DNA of 64,000 nt from positions 1 through 64,000 of IMG/VR virus record IMGVR_UViG_3300042453_004886. One strand, written 5' to 3'. Shown in pieces: positions 35,025 to 58,543 of the stretch (within the stretch, counting starts at the first letter, position 1; the number at the start of each line of letters is the position of its first letter). The DNA comes from a virus. The position numbers and the translations under genes were made by a program. The notes under the pieces were generated by a model that saw only the letters and a list, made by a program, of their open reading frames with translations, was not told where the DNA came from and did not search any database.

Positions 35025-35759
35025 ATGAGTAAACCCCGTCGTTCTCCTGCTGGACGTGGTCGTTCAAACTACGAAGGAGACATCGCTCAAGCGGGCCCAG
35101 TTCCTTTAGCGGCTAAAAAGATTGACACTAAAAAGCTAAAAACTGTTCCTTTTATTCCAAGAGGAAATCAGAAGTCAGTTCTAACTTGCATTAGCAAACA
35201 CGATCTGACTTTTTTAATTGGACCCGCAGGAACGGGTAAAACTTTTCTTCCTGTTGCTTTTGCAGTCGATCAGCTCATCAAAGGAAATATTTCCAAGATC
35301 GTTGCTGTCCGTCCTGCAGTCGAAGCAGGTGATTCCATCGGGTTCTTGACGGGTGGTCTTGCCGATAAAATGGGACCTTACCTCAGACCGGTTCTGGATG
35401 CCTTTGAAAAGTTTCTGGGTAAACCTCAGCTCGATTTGCTCATGGCATGCGGCTTGATCGAAATTACCTCCCTTACATACTTGAGAGGCCGCACGATCGA
35501 GGATGCTGTCTACATCATGGATGAGATGCAGAATGCAACGCCTGCACAGCTCAAGATGGCCCTGACCCGTATCGGGGAGAACTGCACCGCAGTAGTCACG
35601 ATGGACCCCGGACAGTGCGACATTCATCCTGAAGATTCTTGTATTAGAGAAGTTCACAGATTTGAGGGTGCCGAATCTATTGCCGTCGTCAGGTTCTCTC
35701 AGGAGCAAGTTGTACGCTCCAGAATCGTCAAAACCTTGCTTGATTGCTACAACGACTAG
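35025..35759 (+). CDS. phoH: PhoH-like ATPase
   Basis: A 244-residue PhoH family protein, an ATPase of the superfamily 1-like group, often found in phages and thought to act on RNA or in nucleic acid metabolism. Seen: a basic N-terminus, Walker A GPAGTGKT at 66-73, the typical RPAVEAGDSIGFLTG segment, DEMQNATPAQLKMALTRIG at about 165-183 and VTMDPGQCDI, which is close to the family's GDxxQ-like block. The ATG follows GTGAGGTATTAG. It is followed by a strong two-way terminator that separates it from the facing lysis gene unit. Confidence 0.88.
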   Translation: MSKPRRSPAGRGRSNYEGDIAQAGPVPLAAKKIDTKKLKTVPFIPRGNQKSVLTCISKHDLTFLIGPAGTGKTFLPVAFAVDQLIKGNISKIVAVRPAVEAGDSIGFLTGGLADKMGPYLRPVLDAFEKFLGKPQLDLLMACGLIEITSLTYLRGRTIEDAVYIMDEMQNATPAQLKMALTRIGENCTAVVTMDPGQCDIHPEDSCIREVHRFEGAESIAVVRFSQEQVVRSRIVKTLLDCYND

Positions 35760-39878: not shown

Positions 39879-41753
39879 TTATTTCCATTTAGGAATTTTA
39901 GATATTCTTGTAGCACCCAATACAGACATTTTAATACCAGATGCACTCCCTAGTCCATACATTTTTTCTTCTTGAGCAATACGAGCTACAACCGTTACCA
40001 CCGCGTCAGCAAGGTCTTTACTGTTTCCAAGACCTTTACCCTTGGGGTGATCGATCTTTCTACCGTTTACAAGCTGAATCTTTTTAAGCTCTTCGTGAAG
40101 TTTCTTGGCAGCTTTTGAGCTATTTGGGTCAGGTAATCTGATCAAGCCGTTGTCCAGTCTGTGCCTGAACAGCTCGTACATGGCTAGCTGTGTTGGCGCA
40201 GAGAACGTGATTTCTTCTGTGATAACTCCCTGAGTGTACAGTTTCTGTAAGCTAGCTTGGTTTTGCCAGTGGTCAAAGCTCAGTCGTCTGACGTTACGTT
40301 TCATACACACTTCAAAGATGTTCTTCTCGACATCTTGAAGATTAACGGGAATCTTGATCTTGGGATTGTTGGGATCTAACTCGGGTTCCCACTCAAGTAC
40401 CAGATCAATTACAGCAATCAAGCCCTTATCACTGGGCTCTCCGTGCCCTACAGCAAAACCAAAGCTATCGTGCTTGATACCTGGGTCTGCGTGAGCGTAA
40501 GAATACTTGTTGAACTCCATCTCTTCGAGATTGATCACCTGTAACCCGACGTAAGCTCTGTACTGGTTTGACTTCATCTCTCTGGCGGTTTCTTCTGAAA
40601 CCAGAGCCACGCCTTGGGTGTCATAAACCTTTGTAGGAGCGTACTGAGCCACGGGCTGCGCCGTTGAGTACAGTTTGAGCATTTCCTTGTTAAAGAAGTC
40701 TTCCTGAGCCCCAGGGCGAACTCCCATGTAATCTCGACGGGCACCTATGGGGTCCGTTGCAAAGAACGTGGTCAAATCTGGATCGTCTTGTCCGGTGTAG
40801 TTGGGGTTTACGTCCCAGGTACACAGTCTCAAACACATCATGCTGGTAGGATCTAGTTGACCGGTCTCAACAAGCTTCCAAAGACGGTCAGACATGTCTC
40901 CTTCTTGCCATGCAGATCCAATGCCAATTTTAATACCGCCGTCTGGATGCAGCTTGAAACGGGTAGTACCTTTACCGACGTTGTCCCAGAGAGCAAGTCC
41001 TGAGCTTTCTACAGATGCGCCAGGCTCAACGGCAAAGCGGTTGACCTCGTCCATCAGCAGTCCCCAGAGGTTCTTACCGACAAGACCTGCGCCTCTTGAG
41101 TGACCCGCACGGAAAATAACGTTCTTTTTGCGGTGAATAATCTCGGTGCTGAGGACTTCAATGTCTCCGCGCTCAATCATAGAACCAAAATATGCAGAGC
41201 TTTCCATACGTGCTTTGGTGTAAGCAAAGATGGTATCTTTGGCCTGCTGTTCATTTGTAGCGATGGATAGAACGAATACAGGGTCTCCGGGCAAAAGCCC
41301 CAGCTCTTGTCCCGGATCTTCCATTTTTGTAAGTCTGTAAAACTCGTAAGAGGACATTGCGCCCGTCAAACTGCTCTTGCTCGAGCCCATTCCGGATTCT
41401 AAGCTAAGGTTTTTATAGCGTTGTCCGGGCACCCAGAGAGCTTTTTTTTCATCAATCCACTTATCCATAATGGCGGCTTCATCAAACTCTGTGTCGTCGC
41501 TTACGCGCCATTTCTTGAGCTTCTCGCCACGCGTAGGGTCATCAGGAGAAATGCACTCTCCCCACAAGCCTTTGCTGAAAGGAATGCCGTAAAAAGCTTT
41601 CATGATGACACGCTGAGCAGGAAACAGGTACAAACCAAGAATTTCCTTGGCGTACTCAACCGGCGACAACATGGAGTTGTCGTTTTGCATGGCTTCAGAA
41701 ATGATCTGATCTAGTAGTCCATCAAAGCCGCGGTCTTTTTTATCTCTTGCCAT
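39879..41753 (-). CDS. terL: Terminase large subunit
   Basis: A 624-residue packaging motor. ATPase part: Walker A-like ESGMGSSKS at 119-127, Walker B LLMDE at 232-236. RNase H-like nuclease part: D423 (AHADPG), D494 (SFDHW) and D580/D583 (SKDLADAVV), the three-acid metal site that cuts concatemeric DNA. Order and spacing fit tailed-phage TerL proteins, and no intein or insertion is obvious. It sits among virion and fibre genes, unlike the usual adjacency of small and large subunits; the small subunit is not clearly identified. It ends at 39879, 12 bases before the next gene's start. Confidence 0.92.
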   Translation of the reverse strand: MARDKKDRGFDGLLDQIISEAMQNDNSMLSPVEYAKEILGLYLFPAQRVIMKAFYGIPFSKGLWGECISPDDPTRGEKLKKWRVSDDTEFDEAAIMDKWIDEKKALWVPGQRYKNLSLESGMGSSKSSLTGAMSSYEFYRLTKMEDPGQELGLLPGDPVFVLSIATNEQQAKDTIFAYTKARMESSAYFGSMIERGDIEVLSTEIIHRKKNVIFRAGHSRGAGLVGKNLWGLLMDEVNRFAVEPGASVESSGLALWDNVGKGTTRFKLHPDGGIKIGIGSAWQEGDMSDRLWKLVETGQLDPTSMMCLRLCTWDVNPNYTGQDDPDLTTFFATDPIGARRDYMGVRPGAQEDFFNKEMLKLYSTAQPVAQYAPTKVYDTQGVALVSEETAREMKSNQYRAYVGLQVINLEEMEFNKYSYAHADPGIKHDSFGFAVGHGEPSDKGLIAVIDLVLEWEPELDPNNPKIKIPVNLQDVEKNIFEVCMKRNVRRLSFDHWQNQASLQKLYTQGVITEEITFSAPTQLAMYELFRHRLDNGLIRLPDPNSSKAAKKLHEELKKIQLVNGRKIDHPKGKGLGNSKDLADAVVTVVARIAQEEKMYGLGSASGIKMSVLGATRISKIPKWK

Positions 41754-42201: not shown

Positions 42202-45200
42202 TTACTTTCCACTTCCTATTCTTTCCAGTACTCTTAACATTGTCCAGTAGTAATAACCCGGTAATTCAGATTCTAGTAGCTGAGTTTCATTACCAGTTTT
42301 ATCTACCCCAAATAGTCTTATTTCTCCTGTAGTAAGTCTTCTGCTAATAATCGTTTTATACTTCAAGTAAGGATCTGCTGGTACACCCTTTCCACCATTA
42401 AATATTTCATTAATTTCTCTTTGAGTGATTACTTGGTTTGAATTTGAACTGTTTACTTTTGCTTTTATTAAGCTTGATACACCTTCTCTAATATAGTTTA
42501 TATCTTGTAATTCTACAGGATTTATAGGTTTAATATTATTAGTGTTATTCGGTATTAAAACATCTGATCTAGGTATATCTGATAAATCAACACCAGCTAA
42601 ATTTAAGTTTACACTGCTAATAAAAATAATTGAGTTTATATCTATTCCATGAGAAACACACAAAGTACCTAGTATACTAAGTAAATTATTTATCTGTGTA
42701 TTACTTATACTTCTTGTATTGCTAGTATGGCTGTCGCACTCTAATCCTATAAATATAGAGTTTTCTCCTAAGTTGTCGATTCTGCTTCCGTCTTCAATAG
42801 TAATGTAAGCTTTTTTAGGATCTAAAGTACTTACAATTCCTTCAAGTTTAGTTAAAACATTTTCTACTCTTTGTTCTATAGTTCCATCTTTTCGTACAAC
42901 AAAATGGAGAGTTTCTTGTGTACTAGTCTGATCCATATCTTTATTAAATAATCTTATTATTATTCGGGTGGGCTTTAAATCCTGAGTTTTATTACCTGTA
43001 GTCTTAGGTGGAAATTTTATAACTTTAACAGGATTTATAGAAAATTTTATTATATTTTCCGAGTAATTGTATAAAATTTGAACAAGCTCTCCCGTTCTTG
43101 GATCAAATTCGTAAGAATTACCGGAACTTTCTACGTAGGTACCATTTGAACTTTTTGCTAAGCTTCTCATTTTTCTAGAGTTAAGGACTTCTTTTAAAAG
43201 CGCTCTTGCTCCGGCGGGAGTTAAATCTATTACTCCTGAACTTTCTCCAGGAATTGGGTTTCTTCTTATAAACACGCCCTGTATAGGGCTAAACGAAACT
43301 TGACTAATCTGGGTGGGAGTATGGGTACCCCCTTTAACTTTTCTTGATATACCTGTTTTTACAAGAATTAGATCTCTCCAATTACGCTCTAAGTAGTAAG
43401 CAAATCCTTCCCCACTATATTTATCTCCTTGGTAGTGATTTGCGATATTACTGTACTCATCTTTTGTAGCCTGTGGTAAATCTATAGGCCATGGTAACCC
43501 TGTTAGCTCTTGCAAATAATGAGCAAACTCGTGAGCCGTAACACTTAAATAGTCTACTCCCCCAATTAAACGATAATACTTTACGATACTATTATAAGAA
43601 ATTTTTATTATATTTCCGCTATCGTACACTCCTATTGCCCATGTAGTATATATTTCGTGGTCACCCGTGGTTCCTACAAGATCAGTAGAACTAACATTTA
43701 AACTTGTTGGAGCCTCTACCCCGAATACTTCAGCTAATCGAATAGCAAGTTCTTGTGAAGTTTTTGGCATAGGCCTTAACAGTGTAAAACTATTTGTAGC
43801 TGCATCAGTTAGTACGTCAACAGAATCTATACTTACAGAGTTTGCAGTACTTTCAGGGTTAAACTCAAGTTTTAGCGTATTTTCATTGAAACTGTGATCG
43901 GGTATAGGTTGGTTTGTAGCTGCATCCACTATTTCTAGTTTAAACTCTTTAAATTCTTTATTAAGGGGTTTACCTACATCATTTACTAAAACTTCGTTTG
44001 ATCTAGTATTTTCAAATTGATTTAATTCAAATGTTTTTTCTACTTCCCAACTCTGAGAAGAGTTTGTTCTTACGTATAAAGTTACTCTTACTCTACTTGG
44101 GTGATCAGGTATATTAACTGAGAACGAGCTAACTGGCTCAGCTTTATTAAACACTATTGTTACAGTAGTATTCGTATAGGAGTAGTGTCCTTGCTGAAGT
44201 AGTCTAATAGGGTTACTTGTAGTTACTTGCGTGCTTTTTACTGAAGAAGAAGACGCTAGATGATCTAAAGTTTCTACCATGCTTAAAAAGTAAAACTTAA
44301 GTGCTTCTTTTTGGTTCCAAGTTAGTTCTCTATCTTGACTATCGTTTACTACTAAAAACGGAGGGTCTAAATACGCTAGTCTACCGTATTTATTTAATCT
44401 AACTGCCTGTATAGGGGCTTTAAGATCAAGATTTATGTCTATACCAGATTGTTTTATTTCAAATAAGGTAAGAAGATAGTGTTGATTACTGCTGTACCTT
44501 GTGTGAGCATCCTCTTGTCTTAACATACCCTCGGAAGGACTGAAATATAAGGGTATGTCTTTATTTGTTTCTGAATCTTTAAAAGTTAAAGTTATTTTTG
44601 GTCTTAGTAATAGTCCAGAATTTTGTGTTGTTTGAACTATTTTTCTATATTTTGTACTAGAGCTGTTTTGTTTTTCAATCCAATCTATATGGTAATGTGT
44701 GTAATAAATATTCTTATGTCCTTTTACTGCATTACCAGAAGCATCTTGAAAAGTAGACTCAGTATTTGCAGATATTGGAAAGTATCCAATTTTTGGAACC
44801 AAGGAAAAAGTTACGTTAGTAAGTACTCTTTTAAAAGTTTTTGTTTTTTCATCATATTCAGCAATATAGGGAGTTCCATCTGTCTCAAATAATATAACGT
44901 AATTGTCTGTACCGTTCATAACAGCGGTACGACTAAGTTCGGGACTTATATATTTGTCTGAAAATATTACTATACCCCTATTACTTCTAGTTGTTTCGTT
45001 TTCTAGAGTAAGGTCAGAGTAAAGTCTAAAGTAATCCCCAATATTTGTTTTAAATCTGTAATCTAGGTAAACAGCATCTGTTGGTAATTGAATATATTTA
45101 GAGTTTGTAGATAAGATTTGCTTTAATAGTAGCTTTGCATTTTCTCTATCTATGTAAGCAACTTTTCCTGTTGTTATTACAAAAAATTGTCTAGTTATCG

Positions 45201-45549
45201 GATTAAACGACAATTCCTTGTAGGAGTAAGTAGGTAAAAATTGATCGTTTAATTCTTTTTGTTTAAAAAGCTTGGCTTTACTAGTCGGTAACTTGAGAGA
45301 CCTATCTCCACTAATTATTGAGGCTGCCTTTACTATTTTTGTAGACTTTATAGCATAAATTCCTTTTCTTGTTTTTTCTTCAACATCATCTACAATACTT
45401 GATACAAGCTCAGCATCTTCTTTTCCAACCTTTATTATTTCTCTAACTATGCTTTTTAGTACTCTTTGTAAAGTAGAGTAATGCCTTCTAAGAGCAGCTA
45501 TATCTAAATAAGATTTAGATATTTTATTAGACTTTTTTGGATCAGCCAT
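42202..45549 (-). CDS. 1115-residue zincin-motif virion protein (copy 2)
   Basis: A protein closely related to its upstream neighbour. It has a HEFAH zinc-protease signature at 673-677 (TAHEFAHYLQELTG) with a candidate third ligand E714 (SGEGFAYY). Residues about 860-980 resemble a degenerate T7-type amidase: TRIIIRLF instead of the first zinc His, then H882-F-V-V, DGTIEQ, IGLE at 934-937 and a QINNLLSIL helix. Short modules containing FNPxTGxF recur at about 114, 754 and 815. It may cut host proteins or peptidoglycan during entry; that is inference. The next gene starts at its stop. Confidence 0.7.
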   Translation of the reverse strand: MADPKKSNKISKSYLDIAALRRHYSTLQRVLKSIVREIIKVGKEDAELVSSIVDDVEEKTRKGIYAIKSTKIVKAASIISGDRSLKLPTSKAKLFKQKELNDQFLPTYSYKELSFNPITRQFFVITTGKVAYIDRENAKLLLKQILSTNSKYIQLPTDAVYLDYRFKTNIGDYFRLYSDLTLENETTRSNRGIVIFSDKYISPELSRTAVMNGTDNYVILFETDGTPYIAEYDEKTKTFKRVLTNVTFSLVPKIGYFPISANTESTFQDASGNAVKGHKNIYYTHYHIDWIEKQNSSSTKYRKIVQTTQNSGLLLRPKITLTFKDSETNKDIPLYFSPSEGMLRQEDAHTRYSSNQHYLLTLFEIKQSGIDINLDLKAPIQAVRLNKYGRLAYLDPPFLVVNDSQDRELTWNQKEALKFYFLSMVETLDHLASSSSVKSTQVTTSNPIRLLQQGHYSYTNTTVTIVFNKAEPVSSFSVNIPDHPSRVRVTLYVRTNSSQSWEVEKTFELNQFENTRSNEVLVNDVGKPLNKEFKEFKLEIVDAATNQPIPDHSFNENTLKLEFNPESTANSVSIDSVDVLTDAATNSFTLLRPMPKTSQELAIRLAEVFGVEAPTSLNVSSTDLVGTTGDHEIYTTWAIGVYDSGNIIKISYNSIVKYYRLIGGVDYLSVTAHEFAHYLQELTGLPWPIDLPQATKDEYSNIANHYQGDKYSGEGFAYYLERNWRDLILVKTGISRKVKGGTHTPTQISQVSFSPIQGVFIRRNPIPGESSGVIDLTPAGARALLKEVLNSRKMRSLAKSSNGTYVESSGNSYEFDPRTGELVQILYNYSENIIKFSINPVKVIKFPPKTTGNKTQDLKPTRIIIRLFNKDMDQTSTQETLHFVVRKDGTIEQRVENVLTKLEGIVSTLDPKKAYITIEDGSRIDNLGENSIFIGLECDSHTSNTRSISNTQINNLLSILGTLCVSHGIDINSIIFISSVNLNLAGVDLSDIPRSDVLIPNNTNNIKPINPVELQDINYIREGVSSLIKAKVNSSNSNQVITQREINEIFNGGKGVPADPYLKYKTIISRRLTTGEIRLFGVDKTGNETQLLESELPGYYYWTMLRVLERIGSGK

Positions 45550-45550
45550 A

Positions 45551-48500
45551 CTATTTTCTTCCAGCTATTCTAAGCAAAGCTCTTACTGAGGAGTGATAGT
45601 AATAAGCTGGTAATTCAGATTCTAGTAGTTGAATTTCGTTACCAAGTTTATCTATTCCAAACAGCCGCATCTGTCCATTAGGGAGTCTTCTGCTAATAAT
45701 TGTTTTATACTTTAAATGGGGATCAGGTGGCACACCCCTACCGTTATTAAATAATTGGTTAATTTCTTTATAAGTAATAAGGTGATTTAAATTTATACTA
45801 TTTTTATTGGAACCCTTAGATTTTATTAGATTTTCAACAGCTTCTATTATGTAATTTATATCTTGTAAATCTCCAGGACTTACGTTTATACTCATTATTT
45901 CTTGTATAGAAAACGTCGAGCCTTTTACAACATTACTAAAGAAAATTGAATCTTTCTCTATTCTGTAAGATAACCTAATTACAGCTAGCAAGCTAAACAA
46001 AGATTCTATTTGTTTAGGGGTTATGTGAGAGTTATAAATGTCGGCTGGGTCACACTCTATACCTATAACCATAGAATCAGAGAACAAACTGTCAATTTTA
46101 AGATTACCTTGTTGAATGTAAGCACTATCTGAGCTAAAAGATGACAGACAAGTTAAAATATTATTTACTTTTTGTTCAATAGTCCCATCTTTTTTTACAA
46201 CAAAATGAAACGTTTCTTCAGTTTTAGTAGCATGCGTAGAACTTTGAAACATTTTCAATATAATTCTGTTTACAAAGACCATAAGTCCAGGACCCCTGTT
46301 GGGGTATTTTGGAGGCAGATCTACTTTTTCTACAGGCTTTACATTAAACTTTACTAAGTTTGCTGCGTAATTCGTTGAAATCTGACCAAACTCTCCTGTT
46401 CTTGGATCAAACCTGTAAACATTTGAAGATGCATCTATATACTGTATTTCTCCATTAATATTACTTACTGTTGGTAAGTTTCTTACTCCTTGATTATTGT
46501 GTATTTCTCTTAAAAGAAGCTGAGCAACCGCGGGAGTCAGGTCTAAAGAACCTTTATATTCTCCAGTTACAGGATCTCTTCTCATAAAAAGTCCTTGAAT
46601 GGGGCTAAAACTAACTTCCTCTAGTCTAGTTACCTGATAACTTCCTTCAGCTACTTCGGTTAGTACACCTGTTTTTACAATAATAAGGTCTTTCCAGTTC
46701 TCTTCTACGTAGTATGCAAATCCTTCTAATGACCTGTTTTCACCTTGTCTTGTATCAGCGTAGTTACTGTATTCGTCTTTTGTAGCTTGCGGTAAGTTAA
46801 CAGGCCAAGGTACTCCTGTTAAGTCTTGCAAGTAGTGAGCAAACTCGTGTGCAACAACGTTTAAAACGTCACCCTTATAAAACCTAACTGTATCTGCCAA
46901 TTTTATTCTTACTATGTTTCCACCGTCAGTGTATGTACCAATTGCGTCAGTACTGTGAATAACGTGATCACCACTGTTTCCGGAAAGTAAATCAACAATA
47001 TAACCTGATGGAGCTTCCACTCCAAACGATTCCGCTAATCTACTTAAAAGCTCTGCAATAGCACGATCAACATCAGATTTATCTTGAACATTAGATATTC
47101 TTGGAAGGGGTCTTAACAGCTTAAAACTATTAGTTGATGTATCTGTTAAAGCATCAACAGAGTTTATATCTACTAAAGGTACGTGTGACTCGTGTTTGTA
47201 CTCAAGTTTAAACGTATTCTGATTAAAGCCACTAGAAGATGGTAAACTATTTCCAAAAACATCAACTATACGTAATTTAAACTCTCTATATTCAACTGCA
47301 GTTGTACTATCTTTTTCTAATATTTCTATACCAGTCCTAGATGCTTCCGGGTAAATTCCTGCACTATCTGCAAACAGCGATATTTCATTTAGTTGAGTCC
47401 AGCTTTGACTTGAGTTTACTCTTCCAGATACAATCAATCGAATAACTTGAGGGTTGCTTGACGAGTAAGGGATTACAACAGAAAACCGATTTACTACTTG
47501 TGGTCTGCTAAATACAACAGTTATTTCACTATTTGTAAAAGAGTACTGTCCGTTTTGCATCACTTTAGGTGGAGAAATTTGAATATTTAGTCTGCTTTTT
47601 AATGATCTTTCAGAAGATAAATGATCTAGTGCTTTTACCATGCTTAAGAAATAAAATATTAAAGCTTCTCTTTGATTCCAACTAAGTTCTCTATCAGGAC
47701 TATCGTTTGTTATTAAGTATGGGAAATCTAAGTAAGCCAGCTTACCATATTTATTTGTTTTAACGACCTGTACAAAATTTTTCCAGTCAAACCCCATACC
47801 TGATTCTACTATTTCAAACAAGGTAAGAAGATAATGCTGATTGCTGCTGTATCTTGTGTGAGCATCATCTTGTCTTAACATACCCTCTGAAGCGCTAAAG
47901 TACAGGGGAATGTCTTTACCTGTCTCCGAGTCTTTAAATCTTAGAGTTATTTTTGGTCTAAGAGATCCCTTGTTTTCTTCTTGTTGAAATATTTTTCTGT
48001 ACTTAAGTGGTGAATTATTTTGTTTTTCTACTTCAACAATTTGATTGTCTTCCATGTAGTCTAAATCATAAAATGATTTTGCTCTATTGTTAGGATCTAG
48101 TACTGTGTGTTTAGTGTGTGAGCTTACAAGATAGTAACCAGTCTTGGGAATTAGTGAAAACTTTATATGACTAAGAACCTTTGTAAATGTCCTTGTTTTT
48201 TTATTATACTCCGCAATATAAGGTGTTCCATCTGCTTCAAACAGTATACCAAGTTGAAAGTCATTGCCTACAGGACCAAGTGCAATAAGCTCTCTTTTTA
48301 AATCTTTATCTGCAAATATAACTAAATCTACTCTTTGATTTGTTGTTTGCTCAAATTCTAGAGAATTATTAGAGTAAACTCTATAATAGTTATTTTCTGA
48401 TGTTCTAATTCTATACGCTAAGTACGGAGCTTCAACAGCTAGCTGTAGATATTGGGAGTTTGTAGATAAAATTTGCTCTAGTATAAGTGCTGCGTTTTCT

Positions 48501-48916
48501 CTGGTAATAAAAGCAACTCTACCTGTTGATATTACAAAAAACTGACCTGTCAGTGGATTAAATGAAAGTTCTTTGTAAGAGTAAATAATATTACCACTTT
48601 TATCAAGAGCAGTAGTAGAGCTATCTAAAAGATCTTGTTTTAAGTTATTAAGATCTTTTTGTGTAGGTAGTTTTTTAGGTTTTTTTGGAACAAGTCGTTT
48701 GTCTACTAAGTTTACTTTTGGTTTTTTAAGTCTTCTTATTCCCTTTGCTTTATACTCACCTGTTTTAGGGTCTCTTACCATATCTATATAGTCGTCAGAT
48801 CCTGTTGATAAAGACACTACTTCTTTAGCTTTTTGCTTTAACGCCATTAAAAGGGCACGCCAGTATACTCTAGCCGCTGGAGATGTTGCAATTTTTACTA
48901 AGCTCTCAACGCCCAT
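45551..48916 (-). CDS. 1121-residue zincin-motif virion protein (copy 1)
   Basis: A paralogue of the 1115-residue protein encoded just downstream: both share the N-terminal SYKELSFNPxT segment, the ASEGMLRQxDAHTRYSSNQHY block, HEFAHYLQxLTG at 690-700 with a candidate third zinc ligand E731, and the C-terminal degenerate amidase-like part. They seem to have arisen by tandem duplication and then diverged along the whole length. The ATG at 48916 abuts the stop of the 3208-residue gene. It probably forms part of the tail or its tip and may have a protease or hydrolase role. Confidence 0.7.
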   Translation of the reverse strand: MGVESLVKIATSPAARVYWRALLMALKQKAKEVVSLSTGSDDYIDMVRDPKTGEYKAKGIRRLKKPKVNLVDKRLVPKKPKKLPTQKDLNNLKQDLLDSSTTALDKSGNIIYSYKELSFNPLTGQFFVISTGRVAFITRENAALILEQILSTNSQYLQLAVEAPYLAYRIRTSENNYYRVYSNNSLEFEQTTNQRVDLVIFADKDLKRELIALGPVGNDFQLGILFEADGTPYIAEYNKKTRTFTKVLSHIKFSLIPKTGYYLVSSHTKHTVLDPNNRAKSFYDLDYMEDNQIVEVEKQNNSPLKYRKIFQQEENKGSLRPKITLRFKDSETGKDIPLYFSASEGMLRQDDAHTRYSSNQHYLLTLFEIVESGMGFDWKNFVQVVKTNKYGKLAYLDFPYLITNDSPDRELSWNQREALIFYFLSMVKALDHLSSERSLKSRLNIQISPPKVMQNGQYSFTNSEITVVFSRPQVVNRFSVVIPYSSSNPQVIRLIVSGRVNSSQSWTQLNEISLFADSAGIYPEASRTGIEILEKDSTTAVEYREFKLRIVDVFGNSLPSSSGFNQNTFKLEYKHESHVPLVDINSVDALTDTSTNSFKLLRPLPRISNVQDKSDVDRAIAELLSRLAESFGVEAPSGYIVDLLSGNSGDHVIHSTDAIGTYTDGGNIVRIKLADTVRFYKGDVLNVVAHEFAHYLQDLTGVPWPVNLPQATKDEYSNYADTRQGENRSLEGFAYYVEENWKDLIIVKTGVLTEVAEGSYQVTRLEEVSFSPIQGLFMRRDPVTGEYKGSLDLTPAVAQLLLREIHNNQGVRNLPTVSNINGEIQYIDASSNVYRFDPRTGEFGQISTNYAANLVKFNVKPVEKVDLPPKYPNRGPGLMVFVNRIILKMFQSSTHATKTEETFHFVVKKDGTIEQKVNNILTCLSSFSSDSAYIQQGNLKIDSLFSDSMVIGIECDPADIYNSHITPKQIESLFSLLAVIRLSYRIEKDSIFFSNVVKGSTFSIQEIMSINVSPGDLQDINYIIEAVENLIKSKGSNKNSINLNHLITYKEINQLFNNGRGVPPDPHLKYKTIISRRLPNGQMRLFGIDKLGNEIQLLESELPAYYYHSSVRALLRIAGRK

Positions 48917-51900
48917 TTATTGTAACTCTTTTAATATGTTAGGTATATAGTTTATATTTTCGTTACCAGAGGTTGTACCTAACTGATTAACGGCTCTTTT
49001 ATCTGCTTCTACAGAAAATTGTCTATACTCTAGCTTAGTACCTTGAGATAATGCTGCTTCTAGAGCACCTGATATTTGAGAGTGATACCCTCTTACAGCA
49101 ATTAATCCAGCTTGTACTGGGTCTGCTTTCTTTTGATTAACAAGATCTATAAGTTTTAAATCAGAAGTAGAATAGTTATTTGTAATTATATTGTAAAGTA
49201 TTTTTGCACTAAGTATAGTATAGTATTTTACTGGTCTAGGTATTTTAGACGGTTTATTAGTTAATGGGTGATTTAGTAATTTGTAGTAGTTTGTGTAAGC
49301 TTCGTGATCAAGTTCATCAGCAACGGCAACACTTAAAGCCAACTGACTGTGCGTATTTAAAAGAACTTGGCTAATTCCAGATGCACCTGTATTAAAAGAG
49401 CTTGTTGAACTATTCCAAACAAGTTTTTGATCGTTTGTATAGCCTTGACCATCGTTTGCTAGTATGTACGGATTTAAACCAATACTTTCATGAGCTAACA
49501 TTGCAAGAAAAGTTTGAAGCGGAACCATAAGTCTAGCTGTTTCATTACTACCAAAAGCTTTATTGTAAGCATCAGCTATGTAGTAAGTTAGAGTTTTTGC
49601 ATCATCCATTGTGTACTTCATCTCTGTAAAACTACTTAAATAAGCATAAACCGCATCATCCATTGTTTCAGCAAACTCTACTGCAGTCTTAGCTGAATAT
49701 ATACCGGAGTAGGCTTTTTCTACAGCGGTGTATTCTGCTTTTGTTAATAATCTTTTATCATTACCTGCAAGATTACCCTTTTCGTCAAATCTAATTTCAT
49801 CTACTTTTCTTTGCTTTCTACTCGGGTTTTCTAATCTATCTTTTAAATACCTAGCATCTGCTTCAGTTAAAACTAATTGAAACCTACCTGTGATACCGTT
49901 ATAATAAAATTTATTTGATTCTACATCAAATTCAGCTGCATCGAGCATTTTTTTACGTGATTTAGATAATGGTGCAGCAGGCCTTACTTTTTCTGCGGGC
50001 TCTCTAAACTGAGGAAGTTCAAGGTCTATATCAGCAGGTAAAACAGTTTTGGACAGTTTATTTACAAAGTATTCCATGGATGCAATTAAAATTTTAATTT
50101 CGTCTATTATTGATATAGATTTGGTACCAACTGCAGGAACAGTCATGTTTCTTTCTGGAATAGTATACCTACTGTTAGCTTTAACTAGTTCAAATTTAGA
50201 TTTAGTGGTATGAGTTGAAGTAACTTTAGATAGATCTTTAACATCATCACGTGATGATCTATAAGGGCCGGGAGGAGTATTAAAATAAATAGCTTGATGT
50301 GCTTTACTAATCTCTAAAAATGCGGTTTCAAAGTACCTAATAGGTCTTTGAGCAAGCTGAAATAAACCATGTGGATACTCAGTAATACTTACAGCTCCAA
50401 AGAAAACTTTACCGGTGTTATTAAGATAGTTATCAGTAATAAACCTTGAATCTTGAATATTTGAATCTGGATTGTAGACGCTTAAAAGATAGTTAAGAAA
50501 CTCCTGTAAATTGTTTTCGCTAGGAATTACTTCATTCTCTAGTATTTCCTTTTCCCCTGTTTCTGAGTTAGTTTTGGTGTAGTAGTAAAATACAGGTGCT
50601 TTGAAATTGAAGTTATCTTTAACTTTATTGAAAGTTACAAGTAAATGCCAAGGCTTAAAATTAGGTATATCAGGAGCGAGTTTGATCTTTTTTACAAGCG
50701 CGTTTACATCTTTTTCTGAACCGTAAGATTTGGTAGCAAGCTGAACAGCCCAAGATTGAGAAGTTCTATAGTTTGTAGTAGGCCTAGATTTGCTTGAAGA
50801 AGAAGAACTGCCAGAACTTGCAGACGTAGCGCTACCACCACCTCCTGATTTTGGTGTAAATAAAGTATCTTTTGGTAGGTTGCCTGTGGTTGAACCAACT
50901 ACAAAGTCCCCATCTAGGACTTCTAGCATATACGTTACTGCATCTATTAAAAGTCCTACCTCTTCGTATAAAGACAGGTAGTTTTTAGTTTTTGGTGAGT
51001 TAAAATAGCTAAACTGCCAGTTGTTCTCTGTATGTTTTTCTTCATGCTTAATAGTTTTTATGTTTATTGTTCCCTTTAAATTTACTGTTGTGGTTCCGTA
51101 GTAGTTTTCTTGAGTACCTGATCTTTCCGAGGATACATACCTACTAGCCGATTTGTACAGGTAAAAAGCATTTGGCGTCTCCGGGGTTCCCCTAGCATAG
51201 CGCTCAAAAATAGTTCCTAAATATGGGCCTTCTTTAGCTGAAATCCTATCTGATTTCATTGTTAGTTTAGTGCTTGAACTACTTGGCCTACTTACATCAT
51301 ACCTGTCAGGAGAAAAATTAGATCTATCGGATAGATACGCGGTTAAAAACCATTCCAAATCTTTACGAGTCGGAACAACTTCTGTAAAGGTTAGATCATC
51401 CCGACGGTCGGAATCATTGTAAGATAAACTATAGTAAAATTTTCCGTATCTGAGGTCTATACTGCCGTCTTTATTAGTATGTGGTTTAAATATAATTTTT
51501 GGTAAATGCGGATACGATGTTTTATTGCTAGTGCTAACTAAGGTACTAAGACCAGGTATACCGGTTGAAGTTTTTAACATATTAATAAAAGCAGTTACAA
51601 CACGGTTATTTTCAGGAAAGTACTTTGGATCTCTTAGCTGCTCATATACCCCTGGATAACTTTTTGCAGAAGCTGTTCTACCTGCAGCTTGTGCTGCCTT
51701 TTCAACTTTACCCTGAGGATTACCGTTACTTGGAACAGCTCTTCCCGGCCTTCTTGCCGCAGGTCTTGCAGGAGCAGGTTTTTTTCTTTTCTTTGTTGTT
51801 GTGCCGGCTGCTTTTTTACCAGATTTTTCTTTTTTGGATTCCCCAGAACCTGCAGCACCAGAACCAGATTTACCTTTTGAAGCTTGCGCGACTTTAGTCG

Positions 51901-54900
51901 ATGGTTCTTTTCCAGAAGGAGCTTTTTCTGAGTTTAATCCAGATATTTTGTATTTATCATCAAATTTGTGGTCTGTTACTCTAAATACAATTTTGTACCA
52001 AACCCTGTCGTCTCTTTGAATAAATCTTTCAAAGCTTATAATAAATCCGTTGACTTTGATATTTATTCCATCTTCAGGGTACTCTGGAGACTCTACAGGA
52101 GCTTGTCCTTGAGATCTAAGAGTAAGCGTGCAGATGTTTCCAGCAGTCTGCAGTTTTCTGATAATGATGGATTCTTGATACGCCCTGAAATACTGGTATG
52201 TAGTGCCGTCATAGGGATCTTTGTTTCTGTAGTCGTTAAACGGGTCTCTGACAAATTTGGCACCCTTTGCTCCCTGAGCTTGTCCGGTTGTGTATCCAGG
52301 TTGATACTCGCCCAAGAACGAGCCTACAAACTCGATAACTTCATCGCTGACACCCATGGCCTGATAAACAGGTGTAGAGCCAGGGATATTAATCTTTGCT
52401 ATGTTCAGGTTTGTCCTGAACACGACACCATGATCCGCGCCAGGAGCTTGCATGCCCTGAGAAGGACTTGCAGACCGAACAGCAGGCATCATTTCAAAGT
52501 TGTAAGTTGTTCCACCAGATTTAATTGTGAACTCTGGATCAAGAATAAGAGTACTTGTGTAATTCTTTTTAACAGATAAGTTAGTACCATCTCTGTATTC
52601 TTTTATCTTTGAAATAAGCTGCTTGTAATTTTTTGAGTTTCTTCCAACTATAAAATTGGTTCTATCCAGCAGTCTTTCATAGGCGTTTACTACTCTAAGG
52701 GGTAACTTAGGTAGCTTGGGCAGGGGTTTTCCAGATACTGTATTTGTGTATCCAAATAACTGAGCCTGCAAGACGTCTTCAAGTTTTAAATTAGCTACCT
52801 CTGTCGGGTTATCGGAAGCAAGTATGTAACTACTTGTTCCAAGTTTTGTTTTTTCTTCCTTGCTATTTACTGTTTTAATAAGAGAAATACTGTGTATAGA
52901 TAAGATAGCATCTTTATCTAATCCAGTCTTGAATCCAAGATAAAACTTGTAAGGTCCATCTCCTAATACGTTTTCTTTCAAGTTGGTATTTGAGGAAACT
53001 TTTAACGACCGTGATTGAACAGGATTTCTAGTATTCATTCCTCCGTTTATAATTCCTGATAAAATCTCAAAATCATTGGTTCCATTTGTGTAGTATACGC
53101 AAAGATTGAAGTCACTGTATGATTTACCTTTGTCTAGAGAAAACTCTACGGTGTAATTTGCTTCCTCCCCGGCTTCGCTGAATATGATTTTGTTATCTGG
53201 AGTAACTGTAGCAGGAATTTCAAAAAGTCTGGCCCTGAGCTCTAAGCCGTCTTTACCCTGAATATTTTCGTTAAATCCTTCAGTATGTATGTCTAAAGTC
53301 TTACCACTGTTATCGATTACTACATTGACATCTTTCTTTTTTGTAGCTAAATCAAATGTCTGGAAATCAGCTGCCGCTTCAGTTTCAATTTTGTAGTCTG
53401 AGTACCACATTTGAAGAGGTTTTAGGCCTACCTCTTTTAGCTCAAAGTAGGATATAGCAGAGTTTAATTTATTAGCAGATTCTAGTATGCTTGAAAGTAC
53501 ACTATCAGTTTTTTGGTTTAAAAAGAAGTCTGAAATTTGATCTGGACTTACAAAGCTAGCTTGTCTTTCAGCCAGTGTTTTTTTGTAAAAATCATTGTCT
53601 AGAGTAAAATCTTCAAGCTCAAAATTAATCTCTACATCAAAATTGCCATGATCGTTGTTTAACTTAAAAGTGTTAAACTCAAAACTTATAACTTTATTTG
53701 TATTTAATCTACCTACAAATCCAGCCGGAACCTCAATTCCTTTTACAGGATCTACTTCTAGAGCTTCTTTTGCTTGAGTTTGTGTATTGAGTCCAAAAGC
53801 TGATATAACTGAGTCTGATACAATGTATGTTTTTGATGTATTACCAATGTAGTCAACTATAGCTATTTTTGGTCTAATATAAAAATTAGTTAAAGAACTT
53901 AGACTTACCTGTACAGATCCGTATAGAAATCTATTTTTATTAACTCCAGAGTAACTTCCTTTATTTGGTGAAGCTAAATTATTAGACTTGAAAGACAGGT
54001 GTTTTACTTTTCCAGATACTACGTTATCTACATCACCTTTAAACACTGATGTATATATTTTACTTCTTGGATTAGAATTATAAACAGGAACAGTTATTTG
54101 TTGATCATCTGCATAGTAAATATCCTCATTAAGCCCAAAACTAATAAAGTTTGGACCTGAAGAGCTAGAAAACTTTGTTACTATTACATTTGACGAATAA
54201 TCACCATTTTTATCTAGTTTGTCAGATACTTCTCTATACTCTGACTTTAGTGAAATTTTAAATACTACATAGGAAAGGTCACTTGTAGACTTGTTAGGGT
54301 CAAATATTTTTACACCTCCACCAGGTGTAGGTTTAATGACCATGTCTAAGTAGTAAAATTTCGGTTCAACAGGTCCAGGTACATCTCTAAAAACATCTTG
54401 TATTTTTATAGATTTTTCGGAGTTTACAAGAAGTACGTCTTGAAGTGTTGTATCTCCGGGTACGGTTGAAGGTTTGTCTTTTCCTAGCTGACCATTAACA
54501 AAAAAAGTTCTATTTTTTATATTTATTTGAAAATCTTCAATGTAGGTGTATTCCCCTGAAGTATTTGGAGTAACTGAAGGTAAAACATTCCCAATTTCAT
54601 CATAAGGAACACTGGCAATAAACATGGATGCATACGGGTTTTTATCGTAGATATACTTGTGTCTTTGAACTTCATAAGGAATAGATAATTTAAGTTCTTT
54701 TCCTGTGGATAGCAAATACAGCTGTTCTTTAGAAACCCTGAGGTGTACTTCATTCTCAGATACCGTTGCTACAGCAGCATTAATATCAAGATCCTTGATT
54801 ACACCCTTAAAGTCAGGAAGTAAAAACTCTATCTTCTGCTCAACTTTATGCGTGTAGCTAACAACCTTTGAATCAAGCTTTTTGCTTATAAAATCATTGA

Positions 54901-57900
54901 TTCCCTTAAACTGATCGTTAGCCCCTGAAGCTCCCAGATAACTCAGCAACGACTCTGAAGTTATTGAATCCAAGTAGTTTTCAAGGTTTTTGGAAGACTT
55001 GTAGTTTTGAATGGCAGCGTCCTTTACTCCGAGTTTTTTAAGTTCATCAACAGTTTTTTGAGTTTGCATTTGAATTTGGTCAGGGTTTTTCTGTGCAACT
55101 TTTATATCTGTAGCATTTGCTAGTAAGCTCTTAAACACGTAGGGTAGGTCATCTACGCTTTCAGCCTCACTTGCGTAAGACATCTCTCCAACTTGATTTG
55201 TATCAAATAGAGGAACGTTCGCACCGTTTGCATTATTAAATATGAATCCTAAGCCAGATATCTCGTCAGGTATTCTTTCTTTTGGTATAGCGTTTGGGTT
55301 AAACTCAACCTTTATATCAAGTGCTTTAAACACAGCAGGTTTGTTGTAAATAAACTCATTAAGAGGTCTTGTTGCAGTTGAAGGTTGAACAGCAGCTGCA
55401 TTTGTCTGAGGACTGCTTGCCGGAGTAGCACTGTTGTCTAAACCTGGCTTGCTCTCCAGGTTTGCTGCATCTTTTGCATCGTTAACGGGCTTGGTCTCGT
55501 TTTTTTCCAGACTACTTAAAATAGCAGGACTTATGTAGTCATTGTAAACTTTAGATACAGCAGCTTGAACAACAGGATCATCTTTAAACACACTTCCCGT
55601 CACCTGAGGAAGGGTGTCTTTGATAAACGTATCCCAGATCTGGGCAGCCGCTTTCCCGTCCTTTACAAAGGTATCTCCAACTGCCTTTCTCAGAGCATCT
55701 TGAAGCGTAACTGCCATACCTGCATCTGCACCCATGGCAGTGGCTGCAGCTGCAGCCACTGCGCCTAAAAGGCTTGCAGAAGCTCTTGGATTGGCCTGCG
55801 GATTAAACACAGGCACAAACCCATCCATGCCAAATACACCCGACTTTACGGCGCTTACAGCGTTATCCAAGAAAGACCCGTTCAGGTAGCTCATGGGATT
55901 CTTGGGATCATTAACAGCCCCAGCAACGCCTGCAGGACCGTTGACAATGAGATCGCTTAGCATTGAAAGGGCGCTGCGAGGTTTATCTGAAACCGATGCA
56001 TTTGGAGGAGCTGCCACACCAGGAGGCTCAATAGCTGTTGCGGAACCTGCAGGTATATAATTTTTTGGAGTATTTGTAAGAACAAATGATGGACTAACTG
56101 GATCAAAAACGGATTTGGGATCAATGCTTGGATTAACTACTTGCGGGGGTTGAATGGGATTTTGAGCAGAACTTGAATCTGTAATAGAAGGCGGGTCTAT
56201 GTTTCTGATTTCATCAGTGTCTACAACTTGCTGATTTATTTCAGAAGCCCTTTTATCAGAAATAATATTATATATTGCTCTAGCTATGCCTGTAAGCATT
56301 TCGGTGCTTAAGCTTGACGTTGGAACGGGATTATTAATAGTACTAACCGCGTACAGAGCGTCTGTAGCAAGCATTCTTTCAAGCGTGTAAAGATTTACAA
56401 GTGTATCTTCAGATGTAAAGTTAGAAATTATAATTGGATATCTAGTGTTAATACTTTGAATAGACTTCTGTTCGTCTGGGCTAAGAGAGTTATACAAATT
56501 TAGCAAAGCTTTGAAATTTAGTAGATTTTTAGTTTGTTCAAAAAGCTCTGCGTTTGCAGCTTTTACTGCAAGTTTGTAGGTTTTTACATGTTGCGGGTTT
56601 AATGTGATTGCTCTATTTTTTCTCTGCTCTTGCTGAGTTCTTGCACTGTGTAGAGCATTGATTTTTTTAGAAAGTTCTCCAGTATTTTTAAGCTGTAGGC
56701 CTATATCCTCAGTTTCAAGTTTCATATCTTTACCGTACATACCAATAACGTTGGATGTAACGGTAGCGGCCTTTGCCTGATCAATTTGATGGTTCATGTC
56801 TTCAAAGACATCAAACGCACCAACAAACTTTGGTGATGGCCTTTCACTGAATAAAGCTATCTTGATATCTTTTGCTACTTCTAATTCTGAATTAACTTCT
56901 CCAATAATGACATCGTCAGCTGTTCTTATCTGAGAGTGCGAGGAGAATGTTCTGTCTATAAAACCAAACTCATCAATGCCTGACGTCATAACCTTTATAA
57001 TGGTTTCAACACCACCAGGTATCGCTTGATTTTGATTGGTTACAGGGTTAAAAAATATGTTTTTAGGTATTTCCTCAAGCGTTACAACTTGAGCGTATTT
57101 ATCTCCAATGTAGCTGTATGTTTCGTTGTAATCGTTGTAAGCAATAATTGCAAAAGTTGTGATTTCGGTTTCAATCTCTGAAAGCTTGAAAGTCGGGTTC
57201 TCATCTGTAGAATCATCACCGTCTTCAATAACTTTTGCAGTCTTGTTGACAATTTCTTTTCCAAGATGAACGACGTTACAAAAAATAAGTGTGTCATCTT
57301 CGTACTTATCTACTTGGTGCAAATACTGACCAAGATCAAACTCTTCAACAGTTCCACGCGGGATAAGTAGAGTAACAGGTGTATCACAGATGTCCCCGAG
57401 ATCAAACGGAACACTAATATAGTTATTAAACCCGTTGGGTTCAAGAGAAGACCCCAAGATGTAAGCTAACTTACCGCTGAAGCTCTCATTGTCTTCTGGA
57501 GGCTCGTCTACCAAAACCAAGACTGTGGAATCATTTGAGCCCAGCCCAAGTGCGTCTGAAGAGCCCAAGATGAGTCTTGGAATATCTACAGCCTCTTCTT
57601 CTCGATCTGTAACCATGGGGTCTACAAACTGCTTCATGTACTCAGATACAACAATTGGAGCGGAATCAAACGGGTTAGGGTAGTCTGCTGGTACTTCCAT
57701 GGCGTAATCAAAATTGGTAAAACCCCAGGTAGCCAAAAGAGAGCTAATATCTAACTCAAACAAGTTAGAGAGTACAACCATGAAATCCGAGTACTCTTGC
57801 TCAGTGTTTCTGGTAACCTCATTAGATTTATTTAAAAGTGTCTTGTAGCCTGTTTTACACAGGTTCTCAACTTGATGGAACTTACCATAGAAAAGCTCTA

Positions 57901-58543
57901 GCAAGAACCCGTACAGGACATCTGGATCGCCGTCTTCTTCCAAGTCGGCATCAATAAAAGAATCGCCTCTTAAACTCAGTCTACGCTTTCTGTAGCAGCG
58001 AGTAAGCTCTCTGGTGAGCATCTCGTCAAGCGTAAAGGTTTTCTTTGAAAAGCAGGAAGAGCAATAAGAAGACGTGAAGTAAAGACTGTACGTACCAATA
58101 AAACGTTTTAAACCAACGCCAAGTTCAAGGCTTAAAAAGGTTTCACTCTTAGATTCTGCTTCCAAAGCATCTTCTCTTTGGTAGTGCAGAGCAGCATCTC
58201 CAATTGCCTCAAAAAACTCAAAAACAAGAGGATGGTTTTGAAAAGCATTCTGATAAAATTCCGAGAAGTCAGAATTAATCTTAATAACGCCCTCAGAAGG
58301 GCTCCAAACAGCAATGCTTTCACCGATCTCTGTATCAAGTTCAGGATCTACTTCTCTGAATACAAGTTTAGTTCTTATAAGATCTGGGTGAGAGCCCGGG
58401 AAAAACCCCGTGATTTTTTCAAGGTTTTTGGCAACAGATGACCAAAAATCTATAAAATTTCTATTACTAAGGATGTTATCCTCTGTCTCTTGAGAAAACT
58501 CAAAAGATACGACCTCGGTTGTATTTTTTAGTTCAGTTTCCAT
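48917..58543 (-). CDS. 3208-residue virion protein with C-terminal lytic transglycosylase-like domain
   Basis: The largest product in the window. The last 200 residues (from about 3010) look like an SLT-type lytic transglycosylase: AHESIGLNP with catalytic Glu 3019 and GASGISQV at 3053-3060 followed by a helical tail. Other parts: a Cys pair (CSSC) near residue 164, a hydrophobic Ala/Gly stretch around 930-965, beta-rich middle domains, a very basic Lys/Ala/Pro-rich linker at about 2205-2280, two related 200-residue units near 2345-2550 and 2617-2838, and a Ser-rich stretch at about 2560-2590. It may be a tape measure or tail-hub protein that digests peptidoglycan. TAATG overlap with the upstream gene. 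Confidence 0.75.
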   Translation of the reverse strand: METELKNTTEVVSFEFSQETEDNILSNRNFIDFWSSVAKNLEKITGFFPGSHPDLIRTKLVFREVDPELDTEIGESIAVWSPSEGVIKINSDFSEFYQNAFQNHPLVFEFFEAIGDAALHYQREDALEAESKSETFLSLELGVGLKRFIGTYSLYFTSSYCSSCFSKKTFTLDEMLTRELTRCYRKRRLSLRGDSFIDADLEEDGDPDVLYGFLLELFYGKFHQVENLCKTGYKTLLNKSNEVTRNTEQEYSDFMVVLSNLFELDISSLLATWGFTNFDYAMEVPADYPNPFDSAPIVVSEYMKQFVDPMVTDREEEAVDIPRLILGSSDALGLGSNDSTVLVLVDEPPEDNESFSGKLAYILGSSLEPNGFNNYISVPFDLGDICDTPVTLLIPRGTVEEFDLGQYLHQVDKYEDDTLIFCNVVHLGKEIVNKTAKVIEDGDDSTDENPTFKLSEIETEITTFAIIAYNDYNETYSYIGDKYAQVVTLEEIPKNIFFNPVTNQNQAIPGGVETIIKVMTSGIDEFGFIDRTFSSHSQIRTADDVIIGEVNSELEVAKDIKIALFSERPSPKFVGAFDVFEDMNHQIDQAKAATVTSNVIGMYGKDMKLETEDIGLQLKNTGELSKKINALHSARTQQEQRKNRAITLNPQHVKTYKLAVKAANAELFEQTKNLLNFKALLNLYNSLSPDEQKSIQSINTRYPIIISNFTSEDTLVNLYTLERMLATDALYAVSTINNPVPTSSLSTEMLTGIARAIYNIISDKRASEINQQVVDTDEIRNIDPPSITDSSSAQNPIQPPQVVNPSIDPKSVFDPVSPSFVLTNTPKNYIPAGSATAIEPPGVAAPPNASVSDKPRSALSMLSDLIVNGPAGVAGAVNDPKNPMSYLNGSFLDNAVSAVKSGVFGMDGFVPVFNPQANPRASASLLGAVAAAAATAMGADAGMAVTLQDALRKAVGDTFVKDGKAAAQIWDTFIKDTLPQVTGSVFKDDPVVQAAVSKVYNDYISPAILSSLEKNETKPVNDAKDAANLESKPGLDNSATPASSPQTNAAAVQPSTATRPLNEFIYNKPAVFKALDIKVEFNPNAIPKERIPDEISGLGFIFNNANGANVPLFDTNQVGEMSYASEAESVDDLPYVFKSLLANATDIKVAQKNPDQIQMQTQKTVDELKKLGVKDAAIQNYKSSKNLENYLDSITSESLLSYLGASGANDQFKGINDFISKKLDSKVVSYTHKVEQKIEFLLPDFKGVIKDLDINAAVATVSENEVHLRVSKEQLYLLSTGKELKLSIPYEVQRHKYIYDKNPYASMFIASVPYDEIGNVLPSVTPNTSGEYTYIEDFQINIKNRTFFVNGQLGKDKPSTVPGDTTLQDVLLVNSEKSIKIQDVFRDVPGPVEPKFYYLDMVIKPTPGGGVKIFDPNKSTSDLSYVVFKISLKSEYREVSDKLDKNGDYSSNVIVTKFSSSSGPNFISFGLNEDIYYADDQQITVPVYNSNPRSKIYTSVFKGDVDNVVSGKVKHLSFKSNNLASPNKGSYSGVNKNRFLYGSVQVSLSSLTNFYIRPKIAIVDYIGNTSKTYIVSDSVISAFGLNTQTQAKEALEVDPVKGIEVPAGFVGRLNTNKVISFEFNTFKLNNDHGNFDVEINFELEDFTLDNDFYKKTLAERQASFVSPDQISDFFLNQKTDSVLSSILESANKLNSAISYFELKEVGLKPLQMWYSDYKIETEAAADFQTFDLATKKKDVNVVIDNSGKTLDIHTEGFNENIQGKDGLELRARLFEIPATVTPDNKIIFSEAGEEANYTVEFSLDKGKSYSDFNLCVYYTNGTNDFEILSGIINGGMNTRNPVQSRSLKVSSNTNLKENVLGDGPYKFYLGFKTGLDKDAILSIHSISLIKTVNSKEEKTKLGTSSYILASDNPTEVANLKLEDVLQAQLFGYTNTVSGKPLPKLPKLPLRVVNAYERLLDRTNFIVGRNSKNYKQLISKIKEYRDGTNLSVKKNYTSTLILDPEFTIKSGGTTYNFEMMPAVRSASPSQGMQAPGADHGVVFRTNLNIAKINIPGSTPVYQAMGVSDEVIEFVGSFLGEYQPGYTTGQAQGAKGAKFVRDPFNDYRNKDPYDGTTYQYFRAYQESIIIRKLQTAGNICTLTLRSQGQAPVESPEYPEDGINIKVNGFIISFERFIQRDDRVWYKIVFRVTDHKFDDKYKISGLNSEKAPSGKEPSTKVAQASKGKSGSGAAGSGESKKEKSGKKAAGTTTKKRKKPAPARPAARRPGRAVPSNGNPQGKVEKAAQAAGRTASAKSYPGVYEQLRDPKYFPENNRVVTAFINMLKTSTGIPGLSTLVSTSNKTSYPHLPKIIFKPHTNKDGSIDLRYGKFYYSLSYNDSDRRDDLTFTEVVPTRKDLEWFLTAYLSDRSNFSPDRYDVSRPSSSSTKLTMKSDRISAKEGPYLGTIFERYARGTPETPNAFYLYKSASRYVSSERSGTQENYYGTTTVNLKGTINIKTIKHEEKHTENNWQFSYFNSPKTKNYLSLYEEVGLLIDAVTYMLEVLDGDFVVGSTTGNLPKDTLFTPKSGGGGSATSASSGSSSSSSKSRPTTNYRTSQSWAVQLATKSYGSEKDVNALVKKIKLAPDIPNFKPWHLLVTFNKVKDNFNFKAPVFYYYTKTNSETGEKEILENEVIPSENNLQEFLNYLLSVYNPDSNIQDSRFITDNYLNNTGKVFFGAVSITEYPHGLFQLAQRPIRYFETAFLEISKAHQAIYFNTPPGPYRSSRDDVKDLSKVTSTHTTKSKFELVKANSRYTIPERNMTVPAVGTKSISIIDEIKILIASMEYFVNKLSKTVLPADIDLELPQFREPAEKVRPAAPLSKSRKKMLDAAEFDVESNKFYYNGITGRFQLVLTEADARYLKDRLENPSRKQRKVDEIRFDEKGNLAGNDKRLLTKAEYTAVEKAYSGIYSAKTAVEFAETMDDAVYAYLSSFTEMKYTMDDAKTLTYYIADAYNKAFGSNETARLMVPLQTFLAMLAHESIGLNPYILANDGQGYTNDQKLVWNSSTSSFNTGASGISQVLLNTHSQLALSVAVADELDHEAYTNYYKLLNHPLTNKPSKIPRPVKYYTILSAKILYNIITNNYSTSDLKLIDLVNQKKADPVQAGLIAVRGYHSQISGALEAALSQGTKLEYRQFSVEADKRAVNQLGTTSGNENINYIPNILKELQ

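What the first reader, a model, noticed from the sequence alone, without database searches (positions are those of the whole stretch)
42202..48916. Tandem 1.1-kilo-residue virion paralogues with HEFAH zinc-protease motif and degenerate amidase-like end
Seen: two adjacent related proteins both have HEFAHYLQ (673-677 and 690-694) with a Glu about 37-41 residues later, and both have an amidase-like C-terminal region lacking the first zinc His. Known: HExxH plus a later Glu is the metal site of gluzincins. Inference: virion-linked proteases, possibly acting on host surface proteins or on other virion parts, kept in two diverged copies. Such a combination in a tail cluster is not a standard arrangement.
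Basis: partly seen in the sequence, partly recalled or inferred. Interest (0 to 1): 0.85.

Follow-up and report, generated by a model that had tools for sequence, protein, structure and literature searches.

The report
Paired phage tail proteins, probable zinc-protease
A previously unseen pair of large sister proteins, encoded among the tail genes of an uncultured phage, each carry a well-kept zinc-protease signature and a broken cell-wall-amidase-like end; protease domains in phage particles are a known theme, but this family matches nothing else in the databases searched and its fold and activity are unproven.

Summary
Two adjacent genes (1115 and 1121 aa, 47% identical) each contain HEFAHYLQ with EGFAYY exactly 41 residues after the first His. 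The full PROSITE-type pattern plus the later E-x-F-A occurs in at most 1 of 20,000 shuffles of either protein. The C-terminal region reaches the Pfam Amidase_2 cut-off when scanned as a domain, but no conserved candidate for any of the three amidase zinc ligands remains, not only the first His. dN/dS between the copies is 0.18 around the HExxH/Glu part and 0.52 in the amidase-like part. The genes abut a 3208-aa baseplate/hub-like protein and lie in a contractile-tail cluster ending at the terminase. No homologue was found in 50,697 phage records, IMG/VR or one-per-species genomes by the searches used. In the one close relative (a 39-kb contig) the pair is absent at that place, and the hub is three separate genes. 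The zincin fold could not be confirmed: both AlphaFold runs had low confidence. Best reading: a divergent gluzincin-type peptidase in a tail-associated protein, probably acting at host entry; processing of virion proteins, including the fused hub, is the main rival. Protease domains in phage virion proteins are an established theme, so this is a new variant.

The parts
42202..45549 (-). Paralogue 1 (P0001), 1115 aa: probable tail-associated protein with zincin-like domain
   Evidence: ORF; 47% identical to paralogue 2; in the tail gene run
45551..48916 (-). Paralogue 2 (P0002), 1121 aa; start codon abuts the hub gene's stop, and its own stop lies 1 nt before paralogue 1's ATG
   Evidence: ORF; junctions read directly
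43345..43767 (-). Zincin-like domain of paralogue 1, about residues 595-735
   Evidence: 58% identity between copies in this region; element order helix, strands, HExxH helix, Glu helix in a low-confidence model
43519..43533 (-). HEFAH, residues 673-677 of paralogue 1
43393..43410 (-). EGFAYY, residues 714-719 of paralogue 1 (E714 = proposed third metal ligand)
46661..47098 (-). Zincin-like domain of paralogue 2, about residues 607-752
46835..46849 (-). HEFAH, residues 690-694 of paralogue 2
46709..46726 (-). EGFAYY, residues 731-736 of paralogue 2 (E731 = proposed third metal ligand)
42631..42933 (-). Amidase_2-like region of paralogue 1, without recognisable zinc ligands
   Evidence: PF01510; paralogue alignment
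45947..46219 (-). Amidase_2-like region of paralogue 2, without recognisable zinc ligands
   Evidence: PF01510; paralogue alignment
44254..44616 (-). Most conserved block of paralogue 1 (residues 312-432; 75% identical to paralogue 2), function unknown
48917..58543 (-). Adjacent 3208-aa hub/baseplate-like protein; equals three separate ORFs in contig L005 plus an extra C-terminal part of about 1000 aa
   Evidence: phrog_37225; comparison with L005, L003, L004
41763..42212 (-). 149-aa ORF overlapping the end of paralogue 1; in L005 it follows the last hub ORF directly
   Evidence: 49% identity
39879..41753 (-). Terminase large subunit, anchor of the cluster

Best explanation
The two genes encode duplicated, tail-associated proteins of a contractile-tailed phage. 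Each carries in its middle a divergent gluzincin-like zinc peptidase domain: H-E-x-x-H on one helix supplies two ligands and the general base, and the Glu of EGFAYY, 41 residues after the first His, supplies the third ligand. The N-terminal ~450 residues are probably the structural part; the C-terminal amidase-like domain has lost its zinc site and probably serves to bind peptidoglycan or as a spacer. The most likely job is at host entry: the proteins ride near the baseplate and cut envelope proteins or peptide cross-links as the tail passes. Two diverged copies would let them form a hetero-complex or cut two substrates. Shown: the genes, motif, duplication, selection pattern and gene context. 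Inferred: fold, metal, activity, presence in the particle, target.
For: Motif and spacing identical in both copies and far above chance. dN/dS 0.18 around the motif, against 0.52 in the amidase-like region and 0.31 overall. Weak hits to the isolated domain are Peptidase_M90 (E=0.037) and SprT-like (0.1) in Pfam and a YpfJ-type neutral zinc metallopeptidase (0.17) in NCBIfam, all over HEFAH; a discordant NCBIfam hit is noted under evidence against. The order of predicted elements matches the MPTase core described in PMC5512222. The same spacing pattern returned zincin-like HEFGH...E-x-FA regions in other large phage ORFs. Contractile tail cluster on the same strand: portal, major head protein, sheath, baseplate wedge genes, hub, the pair, terminase, fibre genes. 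Amidase-like end without zinc ligands.
Against: Both AlphaFold runs were of low confidence (pLDDT 31.5 and 37.4) and the fold searches found nothing, so the fold is untested. Only two sequences exist, so conservation rests on one pair. The strongest NCBIfam hit to the isolated domain was an unrelated synthetase subfamily (E=0.0014, far below its cut-off). Profile matches to other phage zincins cover mainly the HExxH helix. No secretion, adhesion or virion data. The pair is absent at the same place in the closest relative.
Confidence: 0.42

Rival explanations
1. Assembly protease: the zincin domains process virion proteins, themselves or above all the neighbouring 3208-aa fused hub, cutting it into the parts that related phages make from separate genes.
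For: In L005, which lacks the pair at this place, the same hub region is three ORFs matching residues 12-768, 849-1201 and 1943-2197 of the giant, and other relatives have short separate hub proteins. The first linker (769-848) holds 4 of the giant's 6 Pro-Pro pairs, a dipeptide cut by some gluzincins such as PPEP (the PPEP point is from memory). Processing of large polypeptides is the proposed role of many phage zincins (PMC5512222). The genes are contiguous with the hub gene.
Against: The correlation rests on one contrast; linkers are often Pro-rich anyway; L005 is only a 39-kb fragment, so its phage could carry the protease elsewhere; two 1.1-kilo-residue proteins are large for a maturation protease.
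Confidence: 0.28
2. Injected effector: the proteins enter the host cell with the DNA and cleave host proteins, as proposed for some polyvalent-protein metallopeptidases.
For: Zincins are the commonest domain of polyvalent proteins (PMC5512222) and some jumbo-phage zincins are thought to target host proteins (PMC7824862).
Against: No second effector-type domain was found in either protein; the amidase-like end and baseplate-side position point to the envelope.
Confidence: 0.13
3. Purely structural tail proteins: the motif marks a degenerate or non-catalytic zincin-like fold, or a different fold in which HEFAH is a chance helix.
For: The most conserved blocks lie outside the zincin (residues 312-432 and 1051-1100); the amidase-like domain has clearly decayed; a third HExxH, in the giant (residue 2500), fails the consensus, so isolated HExxH does occur by chance here.
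Against: Full consensus plus spaced Glu kept in both copies, with synonymous changes within the motif.
Confidence: 0.17

Closest known systems
Zincin-like MPTase domains of phage polyvalent proteins and N4-type virion RNA polymerase (PMC5512222)
   Same: HExxH on one helix, later Glu on a second helix, embedded in a large phage protein; the low-confidence model shows the same element order
   Different: No other polyvalent effector domain; sits in a contractile-tail operon; sequence similarity is confined mostly to the HExxH helix; lacks the Asp three residues after HExxH of one widespread clade
VgrG2b C-terminal metallopeptidase of the Pseudomonas T6SS spike (PMC6899460)
   Same: A zincin attached to a contractile injection machine, acting in the envelope of the target cell
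   Different: VgrG2b is fused to the spike and has an immunity partner; no sequence relation was tested or claimed
Peptidase_M90 (MtfA) and SprT-like families
   Same: Best Pfam hits of the isolated domain of copy 2, over the HExxH stretch
   Different: Below family cut-offs (12-14 bits against about 26); match covers only 23-34 residues
Amidase_2 / PGRP-fold amidases (PF01510)
   Same: Domain-level score at the Pfam cut-off
   Different: Match stops before the profile end, and no conserved zinc ligands are recognisable
Contig L005 (IMGVR_UViG_3300042554_002954) and Microcystis phage LMM01-type and Microcoleus phages
   Same: Related terminase and hub proteins, same gene block order in L005
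   Different: No homologue of the pair in any of 15 related records searched

Membership tests
Gluzincin-type zinc peptidase | HExxH in the zinc-protease consensus | tested here: met
Gluzincin-type zinc peptidase | Glu third ligand downstream on a second helix | tested here: inconclusive
   EGFAYY at +41 in both copies; helix only in a low-confidence model
Gluzincin-type zinc peptidase | Zincin fold with H, H and E close in space | tested here: inconclusive
   pLDDT 31 and 37; fold searches empty
Gluzincin-type zinc peptidase | Bound zinc and proteolysis | not testable with these tools
   needs protein
Polyvalent-protein MPTase | Profile similarity to phage MPTase domains beyond the HExxH helix | tested here: inconclusive
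   hhalign probabilities 1.5-34% singly and 68% against a three-sequence set, mostly over HExxH; those loci were picked by the same motif
Polyvalent-protein MPTase | Several unrelated effector domains in one polypeptide | tested here: not met
   no such domain in Pfam, PHROGs or NCBIfam
Peptidase_M90 / SprT-like | Score over the curated cut-off | tested here: not met
   12-14 bits against about 26
Amidase_2 | Score over the curated cut-off | tested here: inconclusive
   26.3 and 26.2 against 26 as isolated regions; 21 bits in the whole proteins
Amidase_2 | Zinc triad His/His/Asp or Cys | tested here: not met
   no conserved candidate residues at these places, judged by eye on the paralogue alignment

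The most novel reading that the evidence does not exclude
A phage lineage fused its separate baseplate-hub genes into one 3208-aa polyprotein and acquired a duplicated zinc protease in the same operon that cuts the polyprotein (for instance at Pro-Pro linkers) during tail assembly: a protease-matured tail hub.
Probability: 0.15. Interest if true: 0.75.

Novelty: new variant of a known kind. Interest (0 to 1): 0.45.

Why it matters
If the domain is an active zincin, this is a protease family of phage tails with no detectable relative in the collections searched. It would bear either on how tails breach the envelope by proteolysis rather than glycan cutting, or on how giant tail polyproteins are matured. 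The contrast with L005 makes the second idea directly testable by virion proteomics.

Tried and rejected
(1) HEEKH in the 3208-aa protein (residue 2500) as a third zincin: fails the zinc-protease consensus; by eye the second half of a weak internal repeat reads THTTKS there (repeat similarity itself only marginal). (2) An F-x-P-x-T-G-x-F module shared by the pair and the giant's end looked significant, but those profiles contained the sequences they found; profiles built without them find neither the second module within the pair nor the giant. Rejected. (3) A lysozyme/SLT domain at the end of the giant (AHESIGLNPY...GASGISQV by eye): no Pfam, PHROGs or PDB match. Not claimed. (4) Single-sequence AlphaFold of the whole paralogue 2 was a poor choice. 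(5) The first fixed-spacing scan used 107 instead of 108 N and is invalid; the corrected viral scan is, and the strict genome scan found nothing. (6) Scans with A1, A2, A4 and the terminase alone found no relatives. (7) HEFAHYLQ itself occurs in unrelated viral ORFs, so the octamer alone is not diagnostic of this family. (8) Photosynthesis markers psbA/D and nblA are absent from the record, so a cyanobacterial host is not shown.

Full report
What is there. Window 42202-45549 and 45551-48916 (minus strand) are two intact ORFs of 1115 and 1121 aa that align end to end at 47% identity. The hub gene's stop directly precedes the start of the upstream copy, and that copy's stop lies one base before the start of the second; the 149-aa ORF overlaps the end of the second copy. 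The window lies in a 194,626-bp virus record, in which the two copies are the only matches.

The motif. HEFAH is at 673 and 690, EGFAYY at 714 and 731, spacing identical. Shuffling each protein 20,000 times gives HExxH in 1.4-1.7%, the zinc-protease consensus in 0.07-0.09%, and consensus plus the later E-x-F-A type motif in at most 0.005%. Nei-Gojobori dN/dS between the copies is 0.31 overall, 0.27 over the zincin-like domain, 0.18 in residues 655-725, 0.14 in the most conserved block (312-432), and 0.52 in the amidase-like region; dS is about 1.0-2.0, so these are rough. Several identical residues inside the motif use different codons. The motif therefore looks kept by selection, but it is not the best-kept part of the protein.

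Fold evidence. Scanned alone, the domain gives only weak Pfam/NCBIfam hits; those to peptidase families are HExxH metallopeptidases (M90 0.037, SprT-like 0.1, YpfJ type 0.17), and one unrelated NCBIfam subfamily has a lower E-value (0.0014) while far below its cut-off. AlphaFold on the two-sequence domain alignment gave pLDDT 37; the order helix, strands, HEFAH helix, helix, EGFAYY helix fits the core described for phage MPTases, but at this confidence it is only a hint, and Foldseek found nothing.

The amidase-like end. PF01510 scores 21 bits in the whole proteins and 26.3/26.2 bits (cut-off 26) as isolated regions. The match stops at profile position 114-115 of 131, and the paralogue alignment shows no conserved residue where the two zinc His and the Asp/Cys would lie.

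Context. On the same strand, from high to low coordinates: portal, major head protein, tail sheath, a gp25-like and a second baseplate wedge protein, a DUF4815 protein, the 3208-aa hub, the pair, a 149-aa ORF, terminase, head-decoration/fibre-like and S74-chaperone proteins. Terminase relatives are Microcystis LMM01-type and Microcoleus phages at about 30% identity. Contig L005 has a near-identical N-terminal terminase part interrupted by an intein-like insert, while its neighbouring genes are only 31-49% identical; it lacks the pair between hub and 149-aa ORF, and its hub is three ORFs. Fifteen related records hold no homologue; L005 is a fragment.

Searches for relatives. None in phage records, IMG/VR with several peptide patterns, or species genomes. 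These pattern scans miss distant relatives. A fixed-spacing motif scan returned other large phage ORFs with zincin-like HEFGH...E-x-FA regions, which show mutual profile similarity but little to this family beyond the HExxH helix.

Reading. A divergent gluzincin-like peptidase in a duplicated tail-associated protein is the best reading (domain identity about 0.75 by my judgement; entry role 0.42). The strongest rival is processing of the fused hub, suggested by the L005 contrast and the Pro-Pro-rich linker (post hoc). Virion zincins are an established theme, as are zincins on contractile injection machines, so this is a new variant of a known kind.

Noticed in passing
48917-58543: The 3208-aa ORF is a fusion of what are three separate genes in contig L005, plus about 1000 extra C-terminal residues; other relatives have short separate hub proteins.
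   Followed up: partly
L005 9992-12031 versus window 39879-41753: L005's terminase is split by an intein-like insert after a stretch 98% identical to the window's, while the adjacent genes are only 31-49% identical: a sharp mosaic boundary.
   Followed up: partly
18870-26873: A 2667-aa minus-strand ORF with no Pfam or PHROGs match.
   Followed up: no
28497-31481: 994-aa ribonucleotide reductase with a weak B12-type insertion-domain hit; PhoH-like gene at 35025-35759.
   Followed up: no
L033, L034, L035, L038, L040, L042, L043, L044, L046, L048, L050: Other uncultured phage ORFs with HEFGH and E-x-FA at the same 41-residue spacing, many in very large proteins.
   Followed up: partly
P0001 residues 312-432 (44254-44616): The most conserved block of the pair (75% identity, two conserved His in DAHTRYSSNQHYLL) has no known family.
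   Followed up: no
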